Assembly (NCBI GenBank): GCA_012514775.1
Contig: JAAYZQ010000260.1
Location: forward strand, 1 to 24,997
DNA from: Anaerolineaceae bacterium
GTDB lineage: Bacteria; Chloroflexota; Anaerolineae; JAAYZQ01
Reading direction: 5' to 3'
DNA: 24,997 nt
Shown: positions 13,488-24,997 of the stretch, piece by piece
Layout of the letters: every line of letters begins with the position of its first letter
Position numbering within the stretch: position 1 is the first letter of the stretch
Translations under genes and position numbers: made by a program
Notes under the pieces: generated by a model
Databases searched by the model: none
Told to the model about the DNA's origin: nothing
The model's input: only the letters and a program-made list of their open reading frames with translations

Positions 13488-13997
13488 CTAGGGCAACATC
13501 GTTGCCATGTATTTGGCCAGTTGTGTGCCGTTCAGCAACCCGGTGTGCCTCACCTGAATCACGCCCTCGCGATCCAGGAGCAGCGAAAGAGGCAGCCCCG
13601 GGGCGCGAAAGGTCTTCATCACCTGGCCGTTCGTATCCAACAGGATGGGATAGCTCACGTCCAGGGCTTGAACGTAAGGCAAGATCTCCTGGGGCGCTTC
13701 CTGGAAGTTGACGCCCAGCACCACAAAGCCATCGCCCTGCCTGGCTCGATAGGCCGCTTCCAGGGCCGGGATTTCTTCCACGCACGGCCCGCACCACGTG
13801 GCCCAGAAATTGACCAGGACGACGCTCCCCCGATAGTCCTCCAGAGAAACGTCCTGCCCATCCAGCGTCTTGAGTCGAAAATTGGGGGCCCGGTTTCCCT
13901 CGCTGATGCCCGCCTTGGCCCCCGATTCCGCCCCGCCACAGGCCAGAAGCAGCGAGCCGAGGAGCAACGAGGCGAAGACCAACCGAATCTTGGTCAC
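13488..13997 (-). CDS. TlpA/ResA-like thiol-disulfide oxidoreductase lipoprotein
   Basis: 169 residues from the GTG start. An N-terminal lipoprotein signal has the lipobox L-L-A-C (C20). A thioredoxin-fold domain follows, with the active site W-C-G-P-C (C69, C72) and a downstream G-L-P-L cis-proline loop. It should be anchored on the outside of the membrane and reduce disulfides, probably in apocytochrome c C-x-x-C-H motifs, using electrons delivered by CcdA, which is encoded immediately upstream. The frame is open to 14060. The GTG at 13997 has a well-placed AAGGAG seven bases upstream and begins exactly at the signal peptide, so it is the best start. Confidence 0.92.
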   Translation of the reverse strand: MTKIRLVFASLLLGSLLLACGGAESGAKAGISEGNRAPNFRLKTLDGQDVSLEDYRGSVVLVNFWATWCGPCVEEIPALEAAYRARQGDGFVVLGVNFQEAPQEILPYVQALDVSYPILLDTNGQVMKTFRAPGLPLSLLLDREGVIQVRHTGLLNGTQLAKYMATMLP

Positions 13998-14031
13998 GGA
14001 AACTCTCCTTTCCATCGGGCGGCAGGCGGCC

Positions 14032-15018
14032 CTACAGCTCGATATCGAGGAAGGTGCCATACTGGGCCAGAAAGCTCAGGCTGTTGCCAAAGATGAGCAC
14101 ACCCATGAGCACGAGCAGGGCGCCGCTCACCATCGAGACCACACCCAGGTAGCGGTTCGCCTTGCGCAGCCAGCGAGACAGCGGTCCGAAGGCTAGGCCC
14201 AGGAGCAGGAAAGGAATTCCCAGCCCCAGGGAATAGGCGGTCAGGAGCACGATGCCCTGCCCCACTGTGTCCAGTTGGCTGGCCACCACCAGGATGCCGG
14301 TGAGGATGGGGCCCACGCACGGCGTCCAGCCGGCGGCAAAGACGACGCCAAAGAGCGCCGACCGCGGGTAGCCCGATTGGCCGGTGTGTTGTATCTCCAG
14401 CTTTTTCTCGCCGTAGAAAAAGTCGGCCCGGCTAAAGAAATAGACGAGCAGGCCGATGAGCAGGCTGGTCACCAGGTTGGGCACCAGGGCGTCATAGCTC
14501 GACAGAAAGTTGAGCGCGGCGGCCAGGGCCGACAATCCGATCTGGATGGCCGGCGCAAAACCCGCCCCGGCCAGCACCACCGCCACCATGAGCAGGGCCT
14601 CGCCGGCGCGCTGCAAGGGAAAGCTGTTGCTCAGGAGCAAGGTCAGAAGGCCCACAACCACCGCCGCCGCCGTCCACTTCTTGCGGTCCCAGCCGGCTGC
14701 CAGCAGGCGCATGCCAAAGACCACCAACAGCACGCCGCCCACGCGCTGCAAGAGCAGCGAGTAGTCGCGGAGCACGCGCCCCAGGAACGTTGCCGAGGCC
14801 CCCAGCAGCACAAAGACCGCGCCAAAGCCGACGACAAAGAACAGGGCGTGCAAGAAGGTCCGGGTCACGTCCCGGCGCCCCGCATCCGCGCTGCCCATGA
14901 CGGCCGTGCCTCCCAGGTAGCCCATATAGGCCGGCACCAGGGGCAGCACGCAGGGCGAGAGAAAGGACAACAGCCCGGCCAGAAAGGCAAGGGGCAGGGT
15001 CACGTTCTGTGCTTCCAT
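14032..15018 (-). CDS. ccdA: CcdA/DsbD-type transmembrane thiol electron carrier with a long internal insertion
   Basis: 328 residues. CcdA proteins pass electrons from cytoplasmic thioredoxin across the membrane to extracytoplasmic thiol proteins. Both key cysteines are present: C23 in L-S-P-C-V-L-P-L and C234 in W-T-P-C-V-G-P. Common CcdA proteins are about 220-240 residues, with the cysteines about 115-120 apart. Here they are 211 apart because of roughly 90 extra residues (about 112-205). These hold two to three additional hydrophobic segments (e.g. V-V-V-G-L-L-T-L-L-L and L-V-T-S-L-L-I-G-L-L-V-Y). The gene is followed 34 bp later by the TlpA/ResA lipoprotein and preceded by ccm genes, so it likely feeds reductant into cytochrome c maturation. 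Confidence 0.9.
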   Translation of the reverse strand: MEAQNVTLPLAFLAGLLSFLSPCVLPLVPAYMGYLGGTAVMGSADAGRRDVTRTFLHALFFVVGFGAVFVLLGASATFLGRVLRDYSLLLQRVGGVLLVVFGMRLLAAGWDRKKWTAAAVVVGLLTLLLSNSFPLQRAGEALLMVAVVLAGAGFAPAIQIGLSALAAALNFLSSYDALVPNLVTSLLIGLLVYFFSRADFFYGEKKLEIQHTGQSGYPRSALFGVVFAAGWTPCVGPILTGILVVASQLDTVGQGIVLLTAYSLGLGIPFLLLGLAFGPLSRWLRKANRYLGVVSMVSGALLVLMGVLIFGNSLSFLAQYGTFLDIEL

Positions 15019-15093
15019 CCGGTTCGCTCCGCTCCCGTTCTCTTCTCAGTTAACTGGCGGCCAGGGTGCCGCGACGGCTCCGGTTCCGGGCAA

Positions 15094-15246
15094 CTAACGC
15101 TCCTGCTCCCGGCGCGGCTCGTCCTCCAGCATCAGGCGCAGCGTTTCCAGCTCCGTGCGAATGCGCTGCTGCCGCACCAGGATGCTCACCACCAGCCCAA
15201 AGGAAATGGCCCACAAGACGGCATAGGCCGCTACCATGTATTCCAT
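15094..15246 (-). CDS. ccmD: CcmD-like small heme exporter subunit
   Basis: A 50-residue protein. It starts M-E-Y-M-V-A-A-Y-A-V-L-W and has one hydrophobic helix (about residues 5-24), followed by a charged, probably helical tail (R-Q-Q-R-I-R-T-E-L-E-T-L). This is the standard CcmD build: a single membrane helix plus a basic cytoplasmic tail that helps release holo-CcmE from the CcmABC complex. A strong AGGAGG ribosome-binding sequence precedes the ATG at 15246. It lies 38 bp downstream of ccmC, where ccmD is normally found. Identity rests on size, topology and position. Confidence 0.85.
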   Translation of the reverse strand: MEYMVAAYAVLWAISFGLVVSILVRQQRIRTELETLRLMLEDEPRREQER

Positions 15247-15284
15247 CGTTCCTCCTACTCATTGTCTTTCCCTGAAGGGGCTCG

Positions 15285-15986
15285 CTAGCCGGCGAGCCGC
15301 TCCTTCAAATGCTCGACGTCGTCCCGCAGCCGCTCCAGGCGAATGCGATGCCCCATAAGCGTGATGTACCAGATCGTAAAGGTGATCAGGCTGAAAAAGA
15401 AGGCGAACATCATGTTCGGCCCCAGCCCTCCCTCTTCGGTGCCAAACATCAGCGGGTGCTGGGTTCGCCACAGGCGAATGGCGATAAAGTTGATGGGCAC
15501 CGAGATAAAGGCCACGATGCCATAGACGGCCGCAAAGCGCGCCCTGCGCGCCGGATCTTCGACGGCGCTGCGCAGCATCAGGTAGCCGACGTACACCAGG
15601 AACTGGATGAGCGAGATGGTCAGCCGCTCGTCCCACACCCACCACACACCCCAGGCGGGCTTGGCCCAGATCGAGCCGCTGATCAACACGCCCAGCATAA
15701 AGACCGTGCCGATCTCGCCGGAGGAGAGGGCCACGATATCCCAGCTCCGTTCCCCCGTCCGCAGGTAGCCAATGCCCGCCACAAAGGTCACGAAAAAGGC
15801 CAGGAAACCGACCCAGGCAGTGGCGATGTGAAAATAGATGATGCGCTGCGCGTAGCGCCCCGTCTCGCTCTGGAGGTTCGCCTCGGGAGCGCCCAGGAGC
15901 GCCAGGTAGAGGGCCACCATGACCAGCACGGCGCTGAGCGCCGTCAATCCAACCAGGATCACAGCGTTGTGTCGTTTCATGTGCAT
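15285..15986 (-). CDS. ccmC: CcmC heme-handling membrane protein
   Basis: 233 residues, six predicted membrane helices. The tryptophan-rich heme-binding motif W-G-V-W-W-V-W-D is at residues 112-119. The two axial histidine candidates flank it: H53 (Y-F-H-I) and H177 (T-Q-H-P-L). CcmC loads heme onto CcmE on the outer face of the membrane, together with CcmA, B and D, all encoded here. The start is 15986 or the second ATG at 15980 (M-K-R-H-N), which is better spaced from a GGGG sequence. The difference is two residues. Confidence 0.96.
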   Translation of the reverse strand: MHMKRHNAVILVGLTALSAVLVMVALYLALLGAPEANLQSETGRYAQRIIYFHIATAWVGFLAFFVTFVAGIGYLRTGERSWDIVALSSGEIGTVFMLGVLISGSIWAKPAWGVWWVWDERLTISLIQFLVYVGYLMLRSAVEDPARRARFAAVYGIVAFISVPINFIAIRLWRTQHPLMFGTEEGGLGPNMMFAFFFSLITFTIWYITLMGHRIRLERLRDDVEHLKERLAG

Positions 15987-16023
15987 ACCCCAAACGTCTT
16001 GGCGACGGAATAGGTTTCCGCGC

Positions 16024-16701
16024 TCATTCCTTCACCACGTAATCAAAGGTCATGAATGCCGCCGCGGGAAAGATCACGTCAAAGGCCAGCAGGAGCTGCA
16101 GCCAGCGCGCGATCTCGGCCGTGGGCAGGCCGTCCAGGATGCCCGCCGTTGCCTTGACGGCGGCGATGAGGACGGGTGCGGCCACCGGCAGGAGCAAGAT
16201 CGGCAGCAGCACTTCTCGCGCCCGGGTCTGGGCCGTCATGGCCGAGAGGATGGTCCCGACCCCGGCAAAGCCCAGGGTGCCCAGGAGAACAACGGCCACG
16301 AGCCGCAGGTCGAACAGGTTTACGCCGAAAAAGGCGGTAAACACCGGCAGCGTCACGATCTCTACCACCAGCATGAACAGGACCGTGGACAGCATCTTGC
16401 CAAAGTAGATGGCCGTGTGATCCACGGGCGCCAGCAGCAGGCCTTCCAGGCAACCGCGGTCCCGCTCGGCGACAAAGGCGCGGTTGAGTCCCAGGATGCC
16501 GGCAAAGGCAAAGGCTACCCACAGCGCCCCCGGGGCCACCTCGCGCACGCCCTCGCCCGTGACCCGCAGGTCGAAGGCAAAGTGAAAGATGACGACGACC
16601 AGCACCGCAAAGACAAACATGGCGCTGAACATCTCTTTGGTGCGCAGCTCCGCGACAATGTCTTTCCAGACGATGGCGGCGATCTTGGCCAAGTAATCCA
16701 T
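16024..16701 (-). CDS. ccmB: CcmB heme exporter permease subunit
   Basis: 225 residues with about six hydrophobic helices and the CcmB-typical cytoplasmic start (I-A-A-I-V-W-K-D-I-V-A-E-L-R-T-K-E). The loop A-E-R-D-R-G-C-L-E-G-L-L-L-A-P and the C-terminal V-I-F-P-A-A-A-F-M-T-F-D are also family features. It is the membrane partner of the CcmA ATPase, and only three bases separate the ccmA stop from its ATG. ATP hydrolysis by CcmAB drives release of heme-loaded CcmE. Confidence 0.95.
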   Translation of the reverse strand: MDYLAKIAAIVWKDIVAELRTKEMFSAMFVFAVLVVVIFHFAFDLRVTGEGVREVAPGALWVAFAFAGILGLNRAFVAERDRGCLEGLLLAPVDHTAIYFGKMLSTVLFMLVVEIVTLPVFTAFFGVNLFDLRLVAVVLLGTLGFAGVGTILSAMTAQTRAREVLLPILLLPVAAPVLIAAVKATAGILDGLPTAEIARWLQLLLAFDVIFPAAAFMTFDYVVKE

Positions 16702-16704
16702 TGC

Positions 16705-17454
16705 TCACCCGGGCGCGGTCACGTCGCGATAGATGTTCTTCATGGCCACCAGGTCAACGCCGTCCCTCGCCCCCTGCCAGGCAAGCCTGCCCCTGTGCAG
16801 GATAGCCGCCCGGTCGCACATCTCCAGCCCCTGCTCCAGGTTGTGGGTCGTCAGGATGACCGTCCGGTTGGAGGCGGCAAGGTCCTGGAGAACCGCCCTC
16901 AGCATGTCGGCCGCTTGTAGATCGAGCCCGGTGTAGGGCTCGTCAAGGAGCATGATGGCCGGATCGTGGAGGATGGCGCGGGCGATGGAAAGCCGCTGCA
17001 CCATGCCCCGGGAAAAACCGCGCACCGGGTCGCGCCGGCGCGCCAGGAGGCCGACCTGCTCCAGGACGGCCTGGATGCGCTCCCCGGCCTGGGGCAGGTT
17101 GTACATGCGGGCGAAAAAGCGCAGGTTCTCCTCGGCCGTCAGATCGCCGTAGAGCAGTGGGTTGTGCGAGATCAAGCCCAGGTCACGGCGCAGGGCGATG
17201 GCCGCCCGTCCCAGGTCTTGGCCGCGCAGCCGGACCTCGCCCGAGCTGGGCCGCGCCAGTGAGGCGATGATGCGGATGAGGGTCGTCTTGCCCGCGCCAT
17301 TAGGGCCAAAGAGGGTGAGAAACTCGCCTTCCGCCACCTGCAGATCAACCCCACGGAGGGCGACCTGGTGGCCAAATGCCTTGGTCACCTTGCGCACGTC
17401 GATGGCGGGCGGCCTATCCACGCTGGAACCTGCTCCCCGGGTGCTCTCTGACAT
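16705..17454 (-). CDS. ccmA: CcmA ABC transporter ATPase
   Basis: 249 residues. Walker A G-P-N-G-A-G-K-T is at 50-57. The signature loop reads F-S-R-G-M-V-Q-R at about 147-154, diverged from the usual L-S-G-G-Q. Walker B I-M-L-L-D-E-P is at 167-173, followed by the D-loop G-L-D and the switch histidine in T-T-H-N. It powers the CcmABCD complex. The ATG at 17454 follows the stop of the upstream gene by one base (TGACATG). Open frame continues to 17808 but is a shadow of that upstream gene. Identity as CcmA rather than a generic ABC ATPase is fixed by direct coupling to ccmB. Confidence 0.95.
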   Translation of the reverse strand: MSESTRGAGSSVDRPPAIDVRKVTKAFGHQVALRGVDLQVAEGEFLTLFGPNGAGKTTLIRIIASLARPSSGEVRLRGQDLGRAAIALRRDLGLISHNPLLYGDLTAEENLRFFARMYNLPQAGERIQAVLEQVGLLARRRDPVRGFSRGMVQRLSIARAILHDPAIMLLDEPYTGLDLQAADMLRAVLQDLAASNRTVILTTHNLEQGLEMCDRAAILHRGRLAWQGARDGVDLVAMKNIYRDVTAPG

Positions 17455-17455
17455 G

Positions 17456-18694
17456 TCAGTTCGATCGCAGCGACTCGTAGATCTGGGCGCGCTGCTGCTC
17501 ATAATCCGCCTCGTCCAGGCGGCCCTCCTCGTGAGCGTCTTCCAGGTCGGCCAGCTCCTCCAGGAGGCGCCGGCGCCGTGGGTCGGACAGGGCCGGCGCG
17601 GCGGCAACAGGCACGGCGGCACGCGGGCGCCTGATGGCCAGCGGATAGACCACCGCGGCCCCCACGGCCAGGCAGACCAGCACGATGCCCATGGTGCGCA
17701 ACAGCCCCTGCTGCCCCTCCCCTGCCGGTTGAGTGGTCGCCGGAGCCGCCTGGCTTTCGGCCTCGGGCATGGCAGAGCCGGCGGCGGCCGCCGCCTCGTC
17801 GACGACAAAGTTCAGGAGCAATTTCTCACCCGCCTGCAGGTCGTTGGCGACGAAAAACGCATAATCGCGGCCCTGAAACGACTGGATGCCCTGGTCGGTG
17901 AGCTGCCCGCTTTGCAGGGTCAGGCCCGGCTGGGTGGCGAGGATGTTGAAGGCGGTGACCGGGTAGGCAAAGCTGCGCTCCAGCGCTGCTGCCTGGTTGG
18001 CGACCATCAAATGATATGACAAAAAGACAAGGGACGTGTCCGACCCCGGAGTCACGGGCTCCGTGTCCCACACGCCGCCCTCGGCCTCGACGTAGCGGCC
18101 GGCCGGATCCTCTTCGCTAAAAGCCACGCCGACGGCATTGGCGGGCAGCGGAATAAACACCGTCGTCCCGGGGCTTGAGCCCTGGCCGCTGCCGGCAAAG
18201 GTCCGGTCGCCGTCGTTGCTGAACATGTGGATCTCGGAGATGCGCAGCACCTGGCCAAAGGACTCGGCGATGACGTGGACCGAGTTCAAGCGCACGGCCG
18301 AGTCGTCGTCAGAGCTTTCGTAGACGGGGATCGTGGCGGTGATCGTTTCGGCATCGGCCTCGAACTGGACCGGCATGGCGCTGCTGTACGGGGCGTCCTC
18401 GTAGACGGCCTCGACCCAGTACTCCAGGGCCGGGTCCCGATCCAGGCCCTCGAAGCGAAAGCGCCCCTCGGCGTCGGTGGTCGTCTCCCGCGTCTCGAGT
18501 TCGTTGCCGTTGCGCAGAGTGTGCAACGTGACGGCCAGGCCTTCGCCGGGCGTGGGGCCGCCGGGCGTTTCGTTCACCACCTCGCCCTCGAGGATGCCTA
18601 CTTCCTGCGCCTGCAGGGGCACCGCCAGGACCAGGGCCAGCAGCAAACTCGCCAGGATCAGGGTTCGCGCCCCGGCGTGCTGTCGTACACTCAT
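17456..18694 (-). CDS. Exported, membrane-anchored Ig-like (carboxypeptidase-regulatory-like) protein in the ccm operon
   Basis: 412 residues. An N-terminal signal peptide (about 1-30, ending A-V-P-L-Q-A-Q-E) is followed by a carboxypeptidase-regulatory-like beta-sandwich (T-T-D-A-E-G-R-F-R-F-E-G-L at about 72-84). A second beta-rich extracytoplasmic region comes next, then an Ala/Pro/Gln linker and a membrane helix near 325-345. The short cytoplasmic tail has a SHOCT-like helix pair (L-L-E-E-L-A-D-L-E-D-A-H-E-E-G-R-L-D). It is embedded in the operon, with a 4-bp overlap with the upstream gene and a 1-bp gap before ccmA. It has no known ccm homologue. A role as an accessory factor for heme or apocytochrome handling is inferred only from context. 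Confidence 0.75.
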   Translation of the reverse strand: MSVRQHAGARTLILASLLLALVLAVPLQAQEVGILEGEVVNETPGGPTPGEGLAVTLHTLRNGNELETRETTTDAEGRFRFEGLDRDPALEYWVEAVYEDAPYSSAMPVQFEADAETITATIPVYESSDDDSAVRLNSVHVIAESFGQVLRISEIHMFSNDGDRTFAGSGQGSSPGTTVFIPLPANAVGVAFSEEDPAGRYVEAEGGVWDTEPVTPGSDTSLVFLSYHLMVANQAAALERSFAYPVTAFNILATQPGLTLQSGQLTDQGIQSFQGRDYAFFVANDLQAGEKLLLNFVVDEAAAAAGSAMPEAESQAAPATTQPAGEGQQGLLRTMGIVLVCLAVGAAVVYPLAIRRPRAAVPVAAAPALSDPRRRRLLEELADLEDAHEEGRLDEADYEQQRAQIYESLRSN

Positions 18695-19080
18695 GACTGC
18701 ACCTCTTCCAGGCCCCCATCCCCGCCGGGCGCCGAGAGGTGGTGCCCGCAGCGCGCACAGAACAGGTCATCGGGGCGCAATGCCGCGCCACACGAAGGGC
18801 AAACCCGTTCCGGTGCAGGGGTGGGAGCAGCTTCTTGCCGGGGCAGCGCCTGCCCGCAGCGCACGCAGAAGCGATCGCCAGGCTGATAGGGCGCGCCGCA
18901 GGTCGGGCAGGCCGGGCCGGCGCTGCGCTTCCTTGCGCCTCTCAGCCGCTGCACAGCCCTGTCAATCTGTACGTCGCTGACGCGCGCCTCGGGCTGTGCC
19001 GCGACACCCGGCTTGAGGAGAGGATAGGCGATGGCCATGGCGGTCAGCGCCGCCATCAGGACAAAGACAACCAGGCTCAT
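18691..19080 (-). CDS. Small membrane protein with two zinc ribbons (CcmI-like N-terminus?)
   Basis: 129 residues. One N-terminal membrane helix (V-V-F-V-L-M-A-A-L-T-A-M-A-I-A-Y) ends in P-L-L-K-P, which resembles the first helix of CcmI. A charged linker and two tandem C-x2-C...C-x2-C zinc ribbons follow: C-P-T-C-G to C-V-R-C-G, and C-P-S-C-G to C-A-R-C-G. The ATG at 19080 overlaps the ccmF stop by 4 bp (ATGA), and its stop overlaps the next start by 4 bp. It occupies the place between ccmF and ccmA. A CcmI-like scaffolding role is a guess; the zinc ribbons are the only firm feature. Confidence 0.75.
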   Translation of the reverse strand: MSLVVFVLMAALTAMAIAYPLLKPGVAAQPEARVSDVQIDRAVQRLRGARKRSAGPACPTCGAPYQPGDRFCVRCGQALPRQEAAPTPAPERVCPSCGAALRPDDLFCARCGHHLSAPGGDGGLEEVQS

Positions 19081-21041
19081 GCTCGCCTCCCCCGGGTCTG
19101 CCCCGGCCAGGCCGCCACCAGCGTGCCGATGATGAGCACCACGCCGCCGATCCACAGCCAGACGACCATGCGATTGACCAACACCTGGAAAGCCGCCAGC
19201 CCGTCGGGCTCCAGGCTCGCCAGGACGACGTACAGATCCTCTCTCAAATTCGACCGCAGGGCGACCTCGGTCACCGCGCCGTCGACGTTGCTGTGCAGGT
19301 TCCGCTCAGGCCGCACGGTGGCCACCTTTCGCCCGCCGCGGAAGACGTCCAGCACGGCCTGGTTGCGGATCTTGTTGCCCGCTTCCTCGACCTGGCGGTA
19401 CGCGTAGTCGGTGTAGGTCAGGGTGTATCCCTCAACCTCGACCGATTCGCCGGCCGCCAGCGCCACCTGGACCTCGGCCTGGTACGCCTGAGAGCCGGTG
19501 ATGCCGGCGACGATGAGCAGGATAGAAAAGTGGATGAGCTGCCCGCCATAGCGCCGCCTGTTGTTGCGCACGGCGCGGCCCGCGGCCACCAGGACGTTCT
19601 CGCCCGCCGAGCGCATGCGCGCCCGGATGCCGACGCCCATCTGGATGATAATCGTGGCCGCCACAAAGGCTGTCACCGAGAACGAGATCACGGCCCACAG
19701 CTCGCGAATGCCCAGCAGGATCAGGAGCACGGCGGTGACGACGGCCACCAACGCTTGCACCCACAGGCTGCGCAGCAGCTTCTCGGCATCGATGCGCCGC
19801 CAATCCACCAGGGGACAGATCCCCACCAGGAGCACCAGGAGCAGGCCCAGGGGACCCATGAACCGGTTATAGTTCTCGGGACCCAGGGAGCTGGCCACGC
19901 CGCGCACCGCCTCGGTAAAGGTCGGCCACAGGGTCCCCAGGAGCACTGCCCCGGCCGTGCCCAGGAAGAGCAGGTTGGTCAGCAGGAAGACAAACTCCCG
20001 TGAGAGCAGGTCGCCCAACTGGCCCTCTCCCTGGAGCTCCTCGCGGCGGGCGATCATCAAGCCCACCGTTGCGGCCAGGATAAGGAGCATGTAGGCCAGG
20101 TAGTAATAGCCGATGGGCGACTGGGCAAAGGCGTGCACCGACTGGATGAGGCCCGAGCGGGTGACAAACGTGGCAAAGATGGTCAGCACAAAGGTGAGGG
20201 CGGCCAGGAAGACGTTCCAGGCGCGGAACATGTCGCGGCGCTCCTGGATAATGGCCGAATGGACCAGGGCCGTGGCCACCAGCCAGGGAATCAGCGACGA
20301 ATTCTCCACCGGATCCCAGCCCCAGTAGCCGCCCCAGCCCAGCTCCAGGTAGGCCCACCAGGCACCGACCAGGATGCCCACGCCCAGCGACGCCCAGGCC
20401 ACCAGCGTCCAGCGCCGCACGCCGCGCAGCCAGGTGGCGTCCAACTGCCCGGTCACCAGGGCCGCGAAGGCATAGGCAAAGGGGATGGTCCACAGAGCGT
20501 AGGCGGCAAAGATGATGGGCGGGTGAATGACCATCCAGAAGTTCTGGAGCAGTGGATTGAGGCTCACACCTTCGACGGGCACCAGGGGCAGCACCTCAAA
20601 AGGATTGGTGAGGACGATGAGCAGGAGGGCAAAGAATGCCTGGGTGAGGGCCAACACACCCATGGCATAGGGCCGCAGGTGGGCGTCCCAGGTCGGCCGC
20701 CGCAGGACCAGGACCCCGGTAAACAGCGCCGGCATCCACAGCCACAGCAACTGGGAGCCCTCCAGGCCCGCCCAGAACGCGGCCAGGATATACTCCGGCT
20801 TCAGATAGGTGCTGACGTGCTCGTAGACGTAGCGCACCACGAATTCGTGGCGAAAGAGCAGCACCAGCAGGATCACCGACGAAACCGTCGACAGGACGGC
20901 AGTGGCCAACAGCGCGTTGCGCGCGCTGGTCACCAGCTCCGGACGCCGTCCCCGCGCCCCAACAACCGACGCCACGGCCGCCCAGAGCGCCGCGGCCAGT
21001 GTCACCCACAGAGCACCATAGCCTATGTCCGCCAGGACCAC
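19077..21041 (-). CDS. ccmF: CcmF heme lyase subunit (cytochrome c synthase)
   Basis: 654 residues, normal for CcmF, with about 14-15 membrane helices. The WWD heme motif (G-W-G-G-Y-W-G-W-D-P-V-E-N) is at about 235-247. Conserved histidines are visible in V-I-H-P-P (H173) and V-H-S-A-I-I (H261). The C-terminal extracytoplasmic domain (about 520-620) precedes a final helix. The start is a GTG at 21041 with a GGGGGGA ribosome-binding sequence. CcmF transfers heme from CcmE to apocytochrome c. In canonical systems it works with CcmH, and no CcmH is encoded in this window. Confidence 0.96.
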   Translation of the reverse strand: MVLADIGYGALWVTLAAALWAAVASVVGARGRRPELVTSARNALLATAVLSTVSSVILLVLLFRHEFVVRYVYEHVSTYLKPEYILAAFWAGLEGSQLLWLWMPALFTGVLVLRRPTWDAHLRPYAMGVLALTQAFFALLLIVLTNPFEVLPLVPVEGVSLNPLLQNFWMVIHPPIIFAAYALWTIPFAYAFAALVTGQLDATWLRGVRRWTLVAWASLGVGILVGAWWAYLELGWGGYWGWDPVENSSLIPWLVATALVHSAIIQERRDMFRAWNVFLAALTFVLTIFATFVTRSGLIQSVHAFAQSPIGYYYLAYMLLILAATVGLMIARREELQGEGQLGDLLSREFVFLLTNLLFLGTAGAVLLGTLWPTFTEAVRGVASSLGPENYNRFMGPLGLLLVLLVGICPLVDWRRIDAEKLLRSLWVQALVAVVTAVLLILLGIRELWAVISFSVTAFVAATIIIQMGVGIRARMRSAGENVLVAAGRAVRNNRRRYGGQLIHFSILLIVAGITGSQAYQAEVQVALAAGESVEVEGYTLTYTDYAYRQVEEAGNKIRNQAVLDVFRGGRKVATVRPERNLHSNVDGAVTEVALRSNLREDLYVVLASLEPDGLAAFQVLVNRMVVWLWIGGVVLIIGTLVAAWPGQTRGRRA

Positions 21042-21102
21042 TATATCCCCCCTAGATGGCAGCGTTGCAGATTCTACAGCCCACCGAGCCCGCCGCCAGC
21101 CA

Positions 21103-21492
21103 CTATTCCTTTTCCTCGTACTTGGACGGGCACTTCATCAACAGATCGTTGGCCTCAAAGACCCCGGCCTCGTGATTGTACTTGCCAATGGCAACGGCTT
21201 CGACGGCATCGACCAGCATGTCGGGCTGCGGTCCGTGGTACGAGATGGGCAGCGTGCCCGTCTCGTCCTCGATCTGGAAAGTCAGGTGCAGCTCGCGGGT
21301 GTTCCACTCCACCGAGTTGGCCACGATGGCACCCGACACGCGCGAGTCGCGCACCTGTTCGGCGTCCAGCGCTTTTACTTCGGAGATGGTCAAATAGTCG
21401 CTGGTCGAGCCCGAAAAGCTGGTGGCAATAAGCAGGCCGATAACCAGGGCGACAACGACGCCACCCACCAGAAATTTCGTCGTCGAAGACAT
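21103..21492 (-). CDS. ccmE: CcmE heme chaperone, cysteine (C-x-x-x-Y) variant
   Basis: 129 residues: one N-terminal membrane anchor (about 7-25) and an OB-fold extracytoplasmic domain (Y-L-T-I-S-E-V onward). The C-terminal heme-attachment motif is L-M-K-C121-P-S-K-Y125, that is C-x-x-x-Y instead of the common H-x-x-x-Y. Variant CcmE proteins of this kind are known from archaea and some bacteria (for example Desulfovibrio) with a System I that lacks CcmH. That fits the gene content here. A strong GAGGAGGGAG ribosome-binding sequence precedes the ATG. It is 61 bp upstream of ccmF. Confidence 0.95.
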   Translation of the reverse strand: MSSTTKFLVGGVVVALVIGLLIATSFSGSTSDYLTISEVKALDAEQVRDSRVSGAIVANSVEWNTRELHLTFQIEDETGTLPISYHGPQPDMLVDAVEAVAIGKYNHEAGVFEANDLLMKCPSKYEEKE

Positions 21493-21522: not shown

Positions 21523-22446
21523 TTAATAGCGTACAGGCGCGCCGCACGTCTGGCAATACTCGGCGTCGGACCGCAGCTCGGCGCCGCACTTGTAACAGAA
21601 GGCAACGTCCAGGGCCTGCCGCCTGCCGGACGGACTGGGCCCGGACCGGTCGGTGAGGGCATTGCCCGCCGGCGGCCGGGTGCTGCGACCCAGCCAGAAC
21701 GCCGCACCCCCTACCGCCAGGAGCGCCACAAAGGCAACGACAAAGGTCAACACCGCCGAGTTGCCAGCGCCGCCGCCCGTGCTCCCGGGCACCGCGGCCT
21801 GCGATGCCGGCTGGTCTGGCTGGCTCGGCGCCGGGTTTGTCAGCGCGTCATTGTCCTTATCGTAGCGAAAGGTCCAGGCCAGGGTTTCGCCGGCCCCCAT
21901 GGAGCCCACGTCGATGCGATGATACTGGAGGCCATCGGTGCCGGCCTGAGACGTGCCTTCCGCCGGCTCGACGACCAGGTTCTCCGCCGCGGGCGGTACC
22001 TGGAACTCGACCGACAGCTCCCCGATGGCATAGTCCGCGGTGTAGGCAAAGGCATACTCCCGCTGTCCCTCGGGTGAGACCGGAAGATCGTCATAGTACT
22101 CCAACTGGAAACCCGGGGCCGCCAACTGGAACGAGACCACCAGGGTTTCCCCCTCGATCCGCGTAGTGTACTGCTGGTTCAGCCGCTCACCGGCCTCCGA
22201 CAGGTAGGCCATGGCCGTCGGCCGGCCCACGCGCGCCGGGATGCGGACCTCGACGGCGGCTGGCAGCGGCGTTTCGGCAGTCAGAGCCCCCTGGTAGATG
22301 ATCAGCATCTCGGGCCGGTCGAACTCGGGCCAGAGAGCGATGCTCAGGACCGCCAACTCTGGCGTTTCCTGGGCCCCAGCGGGGGCCAAGCCCCCACTTA
22401 CCAGAACCAACAATCCCAGAATCAGGACTATGCCCGCTTGCCTCAT
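21523..22446 (-). CDS. Exported beta-rich membrane protein with C-terminal zinc ribbon
   Basis: 307 residues from the ATG at 22446. A signal peptide (I-V-L-I-L-G-L-L-V-L-V-S-G-G to A-G-A-Q) is followed by an extracytoplasmic beta-rich domain of about 190 residues (P-E-L-A-V-L-S-I-A-L-W-P-E-F-D). Then come a Gly/Pro/Gln linker, a membrane helix (A-V-L-T-F-V-V-A-F-V-A-L-L-A-V-G) and a cytoplasmic C-terminal zinc ribbon (C-Y-K-C-G to C-Q-T-C-G). Its layout parallels the Ig-like protein between the zinc-ribbon gene and ccmA. It lies 30 bp before ccmE and 31 bp after the DsbA-like gene. The open frame reaches 22563, but that part overlaps the DsbA-like gene. I do not recognise the family. Confidence 0.75.
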   Translation of the reverse strand: MRQAGIVLILGLLVLVSGGLAPAGAQETPELAVLSIALWPEFDRPEMLIIYQGALTAETPLPAAVEVRIPARVGRPTAMAYLSEAGERLNQQYTTRIEGETLVVSFQLAAPGFQLEYYDDLPVSPEGQREYAFAYTADYAIGELSVEFQVPPAAENLVVEPAEGTSQAGTDGLQYHRIDVGSMGAGETLAWTFRYDKDNDALTNPAPSQPDQPASQAAVPGSTGGGAGNSAVLTFVVAFVALLAVGGAAFWLGRSTRPPAGNALTDRSGPSPSGRRQALDVAFCYKCGAELRSDAEYCQTCGAPVRY

Positions 22447-22477: not shown

Positions 22478-24313
22478 CTACTGGCCGACCATGGAGTCGA
22501 GTACGGCCTGAAAGTCCTCGAGGGCAGAATCGCCTGCAAGGGATTGGCCGTTGTTAAAGACATAGGTGGGGGCCATGGGCACGCCGATCATGGCGCCCAC
22601 CACCGTGCCGCCTTGAGCCCTGGTCAGGGCCGCTGTCGACGTCATGCACTCCGCGAATTGATCCCCGTCCAAGTCCAGCGACGTGGCGTACCCCTCCAAG
22701 GTATCCTCCAGGGCGCCGGATACCGTCCATTCTGCCTGGTTTTCGAAGAGCAGGTCGTGCATCTCCCAGGCCCTGTCCTGGGCGGCGGCGCACTCGGCGG
22801 CGATGGCTGCCTCCACGCCCGGCCCATCCGCGCTGTCCAGCCACGGATGCAGGACATAGATCAGCTTGCCCGTTTCGATGTACTGCTCGCGGAGCCCGGG
22901 CAGCACGTTCAGGGCGTGCTCTGCCGACTCCGGCTCGGCATAGTCCACGAAGGCCAGCATGGCAGCCCTGGCCGTCTGCACGTCACCCACCACCCGCCAG
23001 TTACCGTCCGTCGGGACGATCTCGGGCGTCTGCTCCCCGGCTGCCAGGTATTCGATCACCTGTCCCATCACGCCGATGGACTGCCCGCCACGGAGCGCCA
23101 GGTCGTTGACCAGGAATGTGGGGGTGGCATTGATGCCCAGCGACTCGCCGGCCAGGACATCGGCCTGGACGCTGAGCGCCGCTTCCTCCGAGGTCAGGCA
23201 CGCCTCGAAGGTGTCCTCCTCGAGGCCGATCTCCTCGGCGTAGCCGCGGAAGGTGTCCAGGGGAACGTCGGCTGCCCCCGACCACTCGCTTTGCCCGGCA
23301 AACAACTTCTCGTGCATTTCCCAGTAGCTGTCCTGCTCCCCGGCGCACACGGCCGCCTGGGCCGCCTGGGGCGCATAGGGATGGATGGAAGTCAGGGGAT
23401 ATTGGCGAAAGACGAACCGCACCCGTCCCGTATCCACGTAACGTTCGATGATCTCCGGGATCAGTGTCTCTTCCACCTGCGCACACGCGGGGCACTGGTA
23501 GTCGGAAAACTCGGTTATGACGACCGGCGCGTCGGCCTCGCCCATGCTTCGGTAGCTGTCGGCAGCCACCTCCAGGGTGGGAGCTATGCCCCCTGCCAGA
23601 AGGTACTCGATCTGCTTCTGGAAGGCGGCAAAGGGCTGCGCCCCCGAAAGCCCGATGCCGTTGATTCGAAAGGCAGGGGTACCCGATACGCCGACGCTAT
23701 TCCCCTGGGCAAAGTCGGCCCTCACCTTCTCCGAGTACTTGCCGCCGTCGAGGCAAGCATCGAACTGGGGCTGATCCAGGCCCAAATCGCCGGCCAGGGC
23801 CTTGAACGTGTCCCCGGCCGCCGCCGACCCCGACCACTCTTCCTGGGTGTTGAACAACTCGTCGTGCATCTCCCAGAAGCCGCCCTGCTCACCGGCACAC
23901 TCGGCCGCCTGGGCAGCCAGCTCCGCCTGGGGATGGATGGAAAAGAGCGGGTAGTGCCGGAACTCGTAACGAACCTGACCGTTCTGAATATAGTTGCTGG
24001 CAATCTGCGGGAACGTCTCACGGACGTATCTGGCGCAGTAAGGTCACTGGAAGTCCGAATATTCGACGATGGTCACCGGGGCATCGGGCTCGCCCAGGGT
24101 CCGCCAGTCGTTGGGATCGACCGGCAGGTCGCCGGGCGGTAACACCTCCCCCTGAGACGTCGCGGGCGCCGTCTCCACCGCGGCCGCGCTCGTGGGCGTG
24201 CCGGCCGGAGCACCGGCCGTGGGAGTGGCCATCTCAGGGCCACAGGCGGCCACCAGAAGAGCCACCAGGGCTGCAAGGGCTACAATGATAGTCCAACCAT
24301 GCCTTTTGCTCAT
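22478..24313 (-). CDS. Triple DsbA-like (thioredoxin_4) lipoprotein with a putative selenocysteine encoded by in-frame TGA
   Basis: 611 residues if the TGA at 24046-24044 is read as selenocysteine (residue 90). The signal peptide ends in lipobox L-V-A-A-C (C24), followed by an Ala/Thr/Pro linker. Three tandem DsbA-like domains follow, at about 70-245, 255-430 and 437-611. Their active sites are F-Q-U90-P-Y-C93, Y-Q-C274-P-A-C277, and Y-A-E460-P-E-S463. Each keeps its cis-proline loop (G-T-P-A-F P213, A-T-P-T-F P398, A-P-T-Y P582) and a W-E-M-H helix, so all three folds look intact. The frame is the same on both sides of the TGA, with no shift. The ATG at 24313 has GAGGGGAAG upstream. The predicted role is extracytoplasmic thiol-disulfide exchange near the ccm machinery. 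The alternatives are a nonsense mutation or a sequence error at one base. Confidence 0.85.
24005..24046 (-). promoter_or_regulatory. Candidate bacterial SECIS element (UGA plus downstream two-part stem-loop)
   Basis: Starting six bases after the UGA, the minus-strand RNA can fold into an outer 5-bp stem CUGCG/CGCAG (24038-24034 with 24009-24005). An internal loop of 6 and 3 nt follows, then an inner perfect 5-bp stem ACGUC/GACGU closing the 5-nt apical loop CGUGA (24022-24018). The apical loop begins 22 nt after the UGA and has a G at its second position. Both agree with what is known of bacterial SECIS elements (short distance, small loop with G in the first two places). Folding was done by eye. 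Confidence 0.6.
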
Positions 24314-24409: not shown

Positions 24410-24997
24410 TCAGGTCTCTACGATGCGCCTGCCACGCAGCCGGAGCGAGTTGCTGACCACAAAGATGCTGCTAAAGGCCATCGCCGCGGCGGCCAGCACC
24501 GGGTGCAGCCGCAGCCCCAGCAACGGATAAAAGACGCCGGCGGCCAGCGGGATGAGGATGACGTTGTAGAAAAACGCCCAGAAGAGATTCTGCTTGATGG
24601 TGCGCATCGTCGCCCGGCTCAGGGCAATGGCTCGCGCTACCCCACGCAGATCGCCGCTCATGAGCGTCACGTCCGCGGCCGCCATGGCCACGTCCGTCCC
24701 CGTTCCGATGGCAATGCCCACGTCCGCCTGGGCCAGGGCCGGCGCGTCGTTGATTCCGTCGCCGACCATGCCCACTACGCGTCCCTCTTCCTGGAGGGCG
24801 CGCACCTGGGCCGCCTTGTCGCCCGGCAAGACCTCGGCCACCACGCGCACCGGCAGGCCGCCCGTCCCCTCCTCGCCGGCCAGGGCGAGCTGCCGTGCCA
24901 CGGCCTCGGCTGTGGCGCGATTGTCGCCGGTAATCATGACCACTTCCAGCCCGAGGGTTTGCATCTGGCGGATGGCCTCTATCGATCCTTCCTTTAG
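24410..24997 (-). CDS. P1B-type heavy-metal (copper-like) transporting ATPase, 5'-truncated by the window edge
   Basis: The last 195 residues of a P-type ATPase; the frame is open to the edge at 24997. Visible P-domain motifs are V-M-I-T-G-D-N (hinge) and [14 protein letters not shown]. The P1B-typical [14 protein letters not shown] follows. The two last membrane helices carry the segments [10 protein letters not shown] and [15 protein letters not shown], which are typical of CopA-like copper exporters. Metal-binding helices and any N-terminal domain lie outside the window. The TGA stop at 24410 is 96 bp upstream of the DsbA-like gene on the same strand, so co-transcription is possible. I see no clear terminator or promoter in that gap. 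Confidence 0.93.

What the first reader, a model, noticed from the sequence alone, without database searches (positions are those of the whole stretch)
24005..24060. In-frame TGA at the catalytic Cys position of a DsbA-like protein: likely selenocysteine (U-P-Y-C)
The open frame from 24313 stops at a TGA (24046-24044) and continues in the same frame to 22478. The TGA falls exactly where the first Cys of the thioredoxin-fold C-x-x-C belongs (F-Q-*-P-Y-C, compared with Y-Q-C-P-A-C in the second domain of the same protein). A random stop among 611 codons would rarely hit this one. A two-part hairpin with a 5-nt G-containing apical loop starts six bases after the UGA, as in bacterial SECIS elements. 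Other genes here use TGA as a normal stop (e.g. ccmF, ccmA, ccmB), so the code itself is not reassigned. U-x-x-C versions of DsbA-like proteins are known as a selenoprotein class.
Basis: partly seen in the sequence, partly recalled or inferred. Interest (0 to 1): 0.93.

Follow-up and report, generated by a model that had tools for sequence, protein, structure and literature searches.

The report
Selenocysteine in triple-domain DsbA-like lipoprotein
A bacterial gene for a three-domain DsbA-like protein carries a TGA "stop" codon exactly where its first active-site cysteine belongs; the codon is likely read as selenocysteine, and because the gene sits beside cytochrome c assembly genes, the protein would likely help in that assembly.

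Summary
The minus-strand frame 24313-22478 is interrupted only by TGA at 24046-24044, at the first Cys of a thioredoxin-fold C-x-x-C (F-Q-U-P-Y-C). Two named Chloroflexota records carry the same three-domain gene in the same gene order with TGA at the same codon. A pattern that accepts TGA, TAA, TAG and TGG alike found 87 sites in 773 genomes, all TGA. A SECIS-like hairpin follows at the right distance; TGA sites as a group fold more strongly than Cys sites, though the window's own hairpin alone is not significant. selA, selD and tRNA-Sec (TCA) are present in both relatives, selB whole in one, in fragments in the other. The window's own genome is not held, so its Sec machinery is untested.

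It works like known UxxC DsbA/DsbG-like selenoproteins; the nearest curated family is NF041057. New here: the three-domain form fixed in a ccm (cytochrome c maturation) gene cluster, 51 of the 69 best database relatives beginning after the Sec codon (likely misannotated), and relatives with two or three predicted Sec codons in one protein (9 of 55 frames read). The role in cytochrome c maturation is inferred from gene order only.

The parts
22478..24313 (-). Predicted selenoprotein gene: three-domain DsbA/DsbG-like (Thioredoxin_4) protein, predicted lipoprotein, 611 residues with Sec at 90
   Evidence: Pfam PF13462 x3; AlphaFold2 model mean pLDDT 89.6
24044..24046 (-). TGA codon 90, predicted Sec, first residue of U-P-Y-C
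   Evidence: same codon TGA in L001 and L002
24005..24038 (-). Predicted bacterial SECIS hairpin: outer stem CUGCG/CGCAG, upper stem ACGUC/GACGU, apical loop CGUGA (24022-24018) 21 nt after the UGA
   Evidence: fold z -1.16 on its own; 18-nt run (codons 96-101) identical in L001 and L002, one compensatory wobble pair in L001
24242..24313 (-). Predicted signal peptide and lipobox (LVAAC, Cys24)
   Evidence: read by eye, no predictor run; helix 5-22 in the model; nearest curated family is named a (seleno)lipoprotein
23597..24109 (-). Domain 1, thioredoxin fold with U90-P-Y-C93 at the start of helix 91-99
23042..23551 (-). Domain 2, thioredoxin fold with C274-P-A-C277
22484..22993 (-). Domain 3, thioredoxin fold without CxxC
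24410..24964 (-). Upstream neighbour: C-terminal part of a P-type ATPase (cut by the window edge; ATPase label recalled from the sequence, Pfam gives HAD-like hydrolase)
   Evidence: next to the gene also in L001 and L002
21523..22443 (-). Zinc-ribbon protein of unknown function between the selenoprotein and ccmE
   Evidence: match in L001, none in L002
21103..21492 (-). ccmE
   Evidence: PF03100; 77% and 71% identical in L001 and L002
19077..21041 (-). ccmF
   Evidence: PF16327, PF01578
16705..17454 (-). ccmA (ABC ATPase; gene name from position)
   Evidence: PF00005
16024..16701 (-). ccmB
   Evidence: PF03379; (in L001 only residues 3-24 are matched, at the end of the locus)
15285..15986 (-). 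ccmC-like
   Evidence: PF01578
14032..15018 (-). CcdA/DsbD-TM-like electron carrier
   Evidence: PF02683
13488..14060 (-). TlpA/ResA-like thioredoxin with C-G-P-C
   Evidence: PF00578, PF08534

Best explanation
The gene encodes a three-domain DsbA/DsbG-like protein, predicted to be a lipoprotein, whose first-domain active-site codon is TGA; this codon is likely decoded as selenocysteine (U-P-Y-C) through a predicted SECIS hairpin directly after it, and the protein would exchange disulfides outside the cell membrane, likely during cytochrome c maturation. Shown: the frame, the TGA at the Cys position, the fold model, the same TGA and gene order in two relatives, Sec genes in relatives. Inferred: Sec insertion in this organism (SelB with tRNA-Sec binding the hairpin), membrane anchoring by Cys24, and the function. 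Proposed chemistry: Sec90 as the attacking residue, Cys93 as the resolving one, the GTP loop at 211-213 supplying the cis-Pro; domain 2 is an ordinary Cys site that could pass electrons or disulfides on, domain 3 a redox-silent scaffold. Reducing power would come from the CcdA-like protein encoded about 7.5 kb downstream. I put about 0.93 on Sec and about 0.5 on the cytochrome c role.
For: 1) Same TGA codon in L001 and L002, 56-57% identical proteins. 2) Pattern GAYTTYCARTRRCCNTWYTGY, blind to TGA/TAA/TAG/TGG: 61 sites in 52 of 396 genomes of the class of G002 and 26 sites in 19 of 377 genomes of the phylum of G004; 87 of 87 TGA; reversed-pattern control 0 and 2. 3) 51 of the 69 best database relatives (P0002-P0070) start after residue 90 and 18 cover it, all with Cys: the pattern expected if annotation stops at a Sec codon. 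4) Purifying selection before and after the TGA, dN/dS 0.15-0.31 (from the values). 5) Hairpins: SECIS rule met by 18 of 33 TGA sites (class of G002 and kin, window included), 25 of 26 (phylum of G004) and 54 of 202 Cys sites; synonymous shuffles of the TGA sites 21% and 45%. 6) Machinery in relatives: selA in G001 and G002, tRNA-Sec with TCA anticodon in both, selD in both with an in-frame TGA inside a selD, selB whole in G002, fragments in G001. 7) Gene order ATPase - this gene - ccmE - ccmF - ccmA - ccmB in both. 8) Model: residue 90 at the start of helix 91-99; best solved matches DsbA and BdbD.
Against: No genome of the window's own organism is held, so no sel gene of its own was seen; no tRNA gene lies in the window. 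The window's hairpin alone is only z -1.16, rank 0.13 against synonymous shuffles, and 15 of 33 TGA sites of its own group miss my rule. selA presence does not separate genomes with the pattern (46 of 52) from those without (42 of 52), because selA is common in the class; six pattern genomes show no selA at that threshold. Of the six genomes whose RF01852 match was re-examined, one (G005, which has a TGA site) gave only tRNA-Ser. No protein or selenium data. The cytochrome c role rests on gene order alone.
Confidence: 0.85

Rival explanations
1. The TGA is a true stop: the gene is decaying or split, and the downstream part is made from internal starts, as databases annotate it.
For: 51 of 69 close relatives are annotated as shorter proteins, and internal start codons exist (Met149).
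Against: Same TGA in two other genomes at the same active-site codon, never TAA or TAG in 87 pattern sites, no other stop in the window gene, purifying selection on both sides; the downstream piece lacks signal peptide and first active site.
Confidence: 0.04
2. UGA is recoded here, but as cysteine (a variant tRNA-Cys or a changed Sec system) rather than as selenocysteine.
For: The position is Cys in 18 of 69 close relatives; such recoding has been described elsewhere (recalled, no call).
Against: tRNA-Sec (TCA) with selA, selB and selD in related genomes; selD in five of six genomes itself carries an in-frame TGA.
Confidence: 0.03
3. A sequencing or assembly error turned TGC or TGT into TGA.
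For: Single-base difference; source of the window unknown.
Against: Same TGA in L001 and L002 and in 87 of 87 pattern sites; the closest relatives, 91% and 86% identical, begin at residue 95, just after the codon.
Confidence: 0.02
4. It is a selenoprotein, but works in copper or general disulfide handling, not in cytochrome c maturation.
For: A P-type ATPase gene lies directly upstream in all three loci; weak sequence similarity to solved copper-resistance thioredoxin-fold proteins.
Against: ccmE, ccmF, ccmA and ccmB follow in all three loci, and CcdA- and TlpA-like genes lie further along in the window.
Confidence: 0.35

Closest known systems
NCBIfam NF041057, Rcas_1661 family thioredoxin-like (seleno)lipoprotein; listed as 'DsbG-like protein', UxxC, one Sec, in the 2026 review PMC13188914 (passages seen)
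   Same: Thioredoxin_4-type domain, Sec at the first position of UxxC after a D-F-x motif; whole protein scores 399.5 against a cut-off of 190
   Different: Domain 1 alone scores 178.9, just under the cut-off; three domains instead of one; motif DFQUPYC, where nine core members that I read have DF[LFM]UxxC
DsbA-like selenoprotein (PF01323, UxxC), reported from the Sargasso Sea, PMC1088965 (passages seen)
   Same: UxxC at the DsbA active site with a SECIS after it; PF01323 hit
   Different: Three tandem domains, ccm gene cluster, relatives with two or three Sec
DsbA / BdbD of bacteria (solved structures 3f4r, 3eu3, 4pwo)
   Same: Fold of a single domain; target-normalised TM up to 0.84
   Different: Cys instead of Sec; one domain
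CcmG/ResA/TlpA-type reductases of cytochrome c maturation (recalled)
   Same: Extracytoplasmic thiol-disulfide enzyme in a ccm cluster (inferred)
   Different: Different thioredoxin family; the cluster has its own TlpA-like gene

Membership tests
Bacterial selenoproteins | In-frame TGA at a position that is Cys in homologues | tested here: met
   Cys in 18 of 69 close relatives (the other 51 do not cover the site) and 50 of 51 more distant ones; TGA in window, L001, L002
[quoted passage not shown] rule seen in passages of PMC13188914) | tested here: met
   window loop CGUGA at 21 nt, 5 bp; group test; not significant for the window alone
Bacterial selenoproteins | selA, selB, selC, selD in the same genome | not testable with these tools
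   own genome not held; in relative G002 all four found; in G001 selB only as fragments
Bacterial selenoproteins | Selenium in the protein | not testable with these tools
   needs 75Se or mass spectrometry
NF041057 (Rcas_1661 family) | Score above the curated cut-off of 190 bits | tested here: inconclusive
   whole protein 399.5, but by adding three repeats; parts alone 178.9, 143.1, 92.1
NF041057 (Rcas_1661 family) | Lipoprotein signal | tested here: inconclusive
   LVAAC lipobox read by eye; no predictor run
DsbA-like / Thioredoxin_4 fold | Pfam model and fold | tested here: met
   PF13462 in all three domains, PF01323 in domains 1 and 2; Foldseek DsbA/BdbD
Cytochrome c maturation (Ccm) components | Conserved place beside ccm genes | tested here: met
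   3 of 3 loci of this three-domain form examined (window, L001, L002)
Cytochrome c maturation (Ccm) components | Needed for haem attachment | not testable with these tools
   needs a deletion experiment

The most novel reading that the evidence does not exclude
A family of tandem DsbA-like selenoproteins in which each thioredoxin domain can become a selenoenzyme site by itself: one Sec in the window, two or three in relatives (L049 and L194 with Sec at all three sites, each with its own SECIS hairpin). In Chloroflexota it is built into the cytochrome c maturation gene cluster, which would make selenium a direct part of c-type cytochrome assembly.
Probability: 0.5. Interest if true: 0.68.

Novelty: new variant of a known kind. 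Interest (0 to 1): 0.5.

Why it matters
If true, it ties selenium to disulfide chemistry outside the cell in the gene cluster that builds cytochromes c, a link that my paper searches (listings and passages only) did not bring up. It also suggests that many database proteins of this group begin after their own active site, so the family is widely misread, and it points to near-identical Sec and Cys versions that would allow a direct comparison of what selenium adds.

Tried and rejected
a pattern that I wrote one base out of frame, run on 400 genomes; its two hits are not used. Rfam, 3 weak matches below their gathering scores, taken as chance; viral contigs, no relative; plasmids, 1658 records, all under 60% identity and none covering 80% of the query; not pursued; selA as a discriminating test failed, since it is common in the class; tree of 78 proteins on columns after the Sec site; the Cys label needs 5 changes (shuffled mean 20.6; starred branches force only 2), so switches likely occurred but direction is not settled; 'truncated' rows count as Sec there by inference; motif filters that found no site in L202-L211 (85 printed three unrelated stretches) because they were wrong for these sequences; one search read nine of the ten directly and found UxxC in all nine. 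The 96-102 codon test (6 of 7 identical codons against 71 of 255, p 0.003) was chosen after seeing the alignment; the wider 91-106 stretch gives 7 of 13 against 70 of 249. L002's second TGA is weak evidence for two Sec, because P0058, 97% identical, has Cys there. One search lists 6 of 7 genomes over the tRNA-Sec cut-off; ARAGORN on six loci (one for each of six genomes) confirmed five, and G005's is a tRNA-Ser. Six loci whose matches to A1 were reported with one inner TGA (L110, L113, L114, L115, L118, L121) were looked at; only L114's site could be read there, the other five were left.

Full report
Observation. The frame 24313-22478 on the minus strand is open except for one TGA at codon 90 (24046-24044), at the first Cys position of a thioredoxin-fold active site. 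Pfam finds Thioredoxin_4 three times. An AlphaFold2 model (mean pLDDT 89.6, 47-row alignment, Cys entered for Sec) shows three domains of the same order of strands and helices, with residue 90 just before helix 91-99 and the GTP loop at 211-213 before the next strand. Foldseek gives DsbA and BdbD structures as best matches to one domain, target-normalised TM up to 0.84. Domain 2 has CPAC, domain 3 no CxxC.

Is the TGA a sense codon? The one scan of genome contigs kept the best 80 of 486 relatives. Two, L001 (JAMJFU010000055.1, Anaerolineae) and L002 (JAGVRI010000024.1, Chloroflexi), are the same three-domain protein at 56-57% identity, and both have TGA at the same codon. To see whether other stops occur there, I searched genomes with a pattern for D-F-Q-x-P-[FY]-C in which x may be TGA, TAA, TAG or TGG. 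In the class of G002 (the genome of L002), 61 sites lay in 52 of 396 genomes; in the phylum of G004 (the genome of L049; the group also holds G003, a Polyangiaceae record, so I call it myxobacterial), 26 sites in 19 of 377. All 87 were TGA; the reversed pattern matched 0 and 2 times. With the curated family NF041057, 288 genomes of the class gave 41 listed matches that pass the cut-off on their own; 33 hold one TGA, 8 no stop. Nine of the TGA matches were read and all nine have UxxC.

Database relatives. Of P0002-P0070, 51 of 69 begin after residue 90 and 18 cover it, all with Cys; of P0071-P0121, 50 of 51 cover it with Cys. Only the best 120 of 3367 matches are listed. Some truncated ones lie on contigs of 45-317 kb, so contig ends do not explain those. 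This is what gene callers produce at an unrecognised Sec codon; that these genes hold TGA is inferred, as their DNA was not seen.

Selection. Between window, L001 and L002, dN/dS (NG86) is 0.15-0.31 in all twelve comparisons, before and after the TGA (ratios of the values; dS is partly saturated). The gene is not decaying.

SECIS. The window hairpin has its CGUGA loop 21 nt after the UGA on a 5-bp upper stem and so meets the rule given in PMC13188914 (passages seen). L001 and L002 have the same loop and upper stem at this site; codons 96-101 are identical in all three, and in L001 one outer pair changes on both sides by two silent changes (TGC/CCG to TGT/CCA). As a group, 45 nt after TGA sites fold more strongly than after Cys sites, -15.3 against -10.7 kcal/mol at equal G+C (59 and 202 sites; the Cys pattern was wider and its loci of mixed taxa). 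Against synonymous shuffles, mean z is -0.88 (33 sites: class of G002 and kin, window included), -1.40 (26 myxobacterial) and -0.25 (202 Cys); Mann-Whitney p 0.005 and 6e-7, not corrected for relatedness. The window alone reaches only z -1.16.

Machinery. Not testable in the window's genome. In G002 (L002): selA, selB, selD over cut-off and tRNA-Sec (TCA). In G001 (L001): selA, selD and tRNA-Sec, selB in fragments. Overall: selB over cut-off in 6 of 7 genomes; tRNA-Sec over cut-off in 6 of 7, of which ARAGORN, run on one locus each of six genomes, confirms five (G005 is a tRNA-Ser; G006 was not run); selA in 10 of 11; selD in 6 of 6, five of them with an in-frame TGA inside a selD. selA does not discriminate: 46 of 52 genomes with the pattern, 42 of 52 without.

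Neighbourhood and function. The order P-type ATPase - this gene - ccmE - ccmF - zinc-ribbon protein - unknown - ccmA - ccmB is kept in window, L001 and L002 (L001 ends early in ccmB; the protein at 21523-22443 is matched in L001 but not in L002). The window continues with ccmC-like, CcdA-like and TlpA-like genes. With its predicted lipobox the protein would sit on the outer face of the membrane. I infer a Sec-based thiol-disulfide enzyme for apocytochrome c thiols or a component nearby; copper handling or general disulfide repair are open alternatives.

Multi-Sec relatives. From the loci fetched (30 loci for the 61 sites, all 26, and earlier ones) I read 55 non-redundant frames that carry the pattern; 10 run off their locus, so counts are lower bounds. 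Nine have two or more UxxC codons and two have three (L049, L194). Seven of the nine meet the SECIS rule at every UGA (16 of 16 sites); L147 and L152 meet it at none of their four. Four of the nine were checked with family models (L002, L049, L147, L194). L002's second site is doubtful, because a 97%-identical protein has Cys there.

Known or new. UxxC DsbA-like selenoproteins are reported from 2005 (PMC1088965, passages seen). PMC13188914 (passages seen) lists NF041057 as 'DsbG-like', UxxC, one Sec, 'DsbA-like form 1' with one Sec, and says that a small subset of families has 2-3 Sec, so several Sec in one bacterial protein is not new in itself. The window protein passes the NF041057 cut-off only by the sum of three domains (399.5; parts 178.9, 143.1, 92.1). 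I therefore call it a close three-domain variant. PMC1794560 and PMC5029168 (passages seen) count DsbA-like or DsbG-like selenoproteins without Sec numbers in what I saw; PMC12013277 had no hit for my terms. No listing or passage from searches showed multi-Sec tandem DsbA proteins or a ccm link; I did not read the listed papers whole, most subscription papers are not held, and Haft and Tolstoy 2025 could not be read.

Noticed in passing
L002 codon 272 of the gene, against P0058: L002 has TGA in the second-domain active site where a 97%-identical protein has Cys: a very recent Cys/Sec swap or an assembly error.
   Followed up: partly
L049:5677-7908 and L194 (minus strand): Two genes of the myxobacterial group with three UxxC codons in one frame, each followed by a hairpin that fits the SECIS rule.
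   Followed up: partly
L202-L210: Single-domain-length NF041057 matches in the class of G002 with UxxC after D-[YF]-S-D-F-[LFM]; 33 of 41 listed matches over cut-off carry TGA.
   Followed up: partly
L197 (G001:C515:18799-19725): A selD match inside a 770-residue open frame without TGA, in a genome that also has a second selD with an in-frame TGA.
   Followed up: no
window 13488-21492: ccm cluster (E, F, A, B, C-like) with CcdA- and TlpA-like genes; the zinc-ribbon protein and the 412-residue protein between ccmF and ccmA are matched in L001 and L002.
   Followed up: partly
L031, L189: Three-motif proteins with one UxxC and two CxxC sites: mixed Sec/Cys forms of a tandem protein.
   Followed up: no
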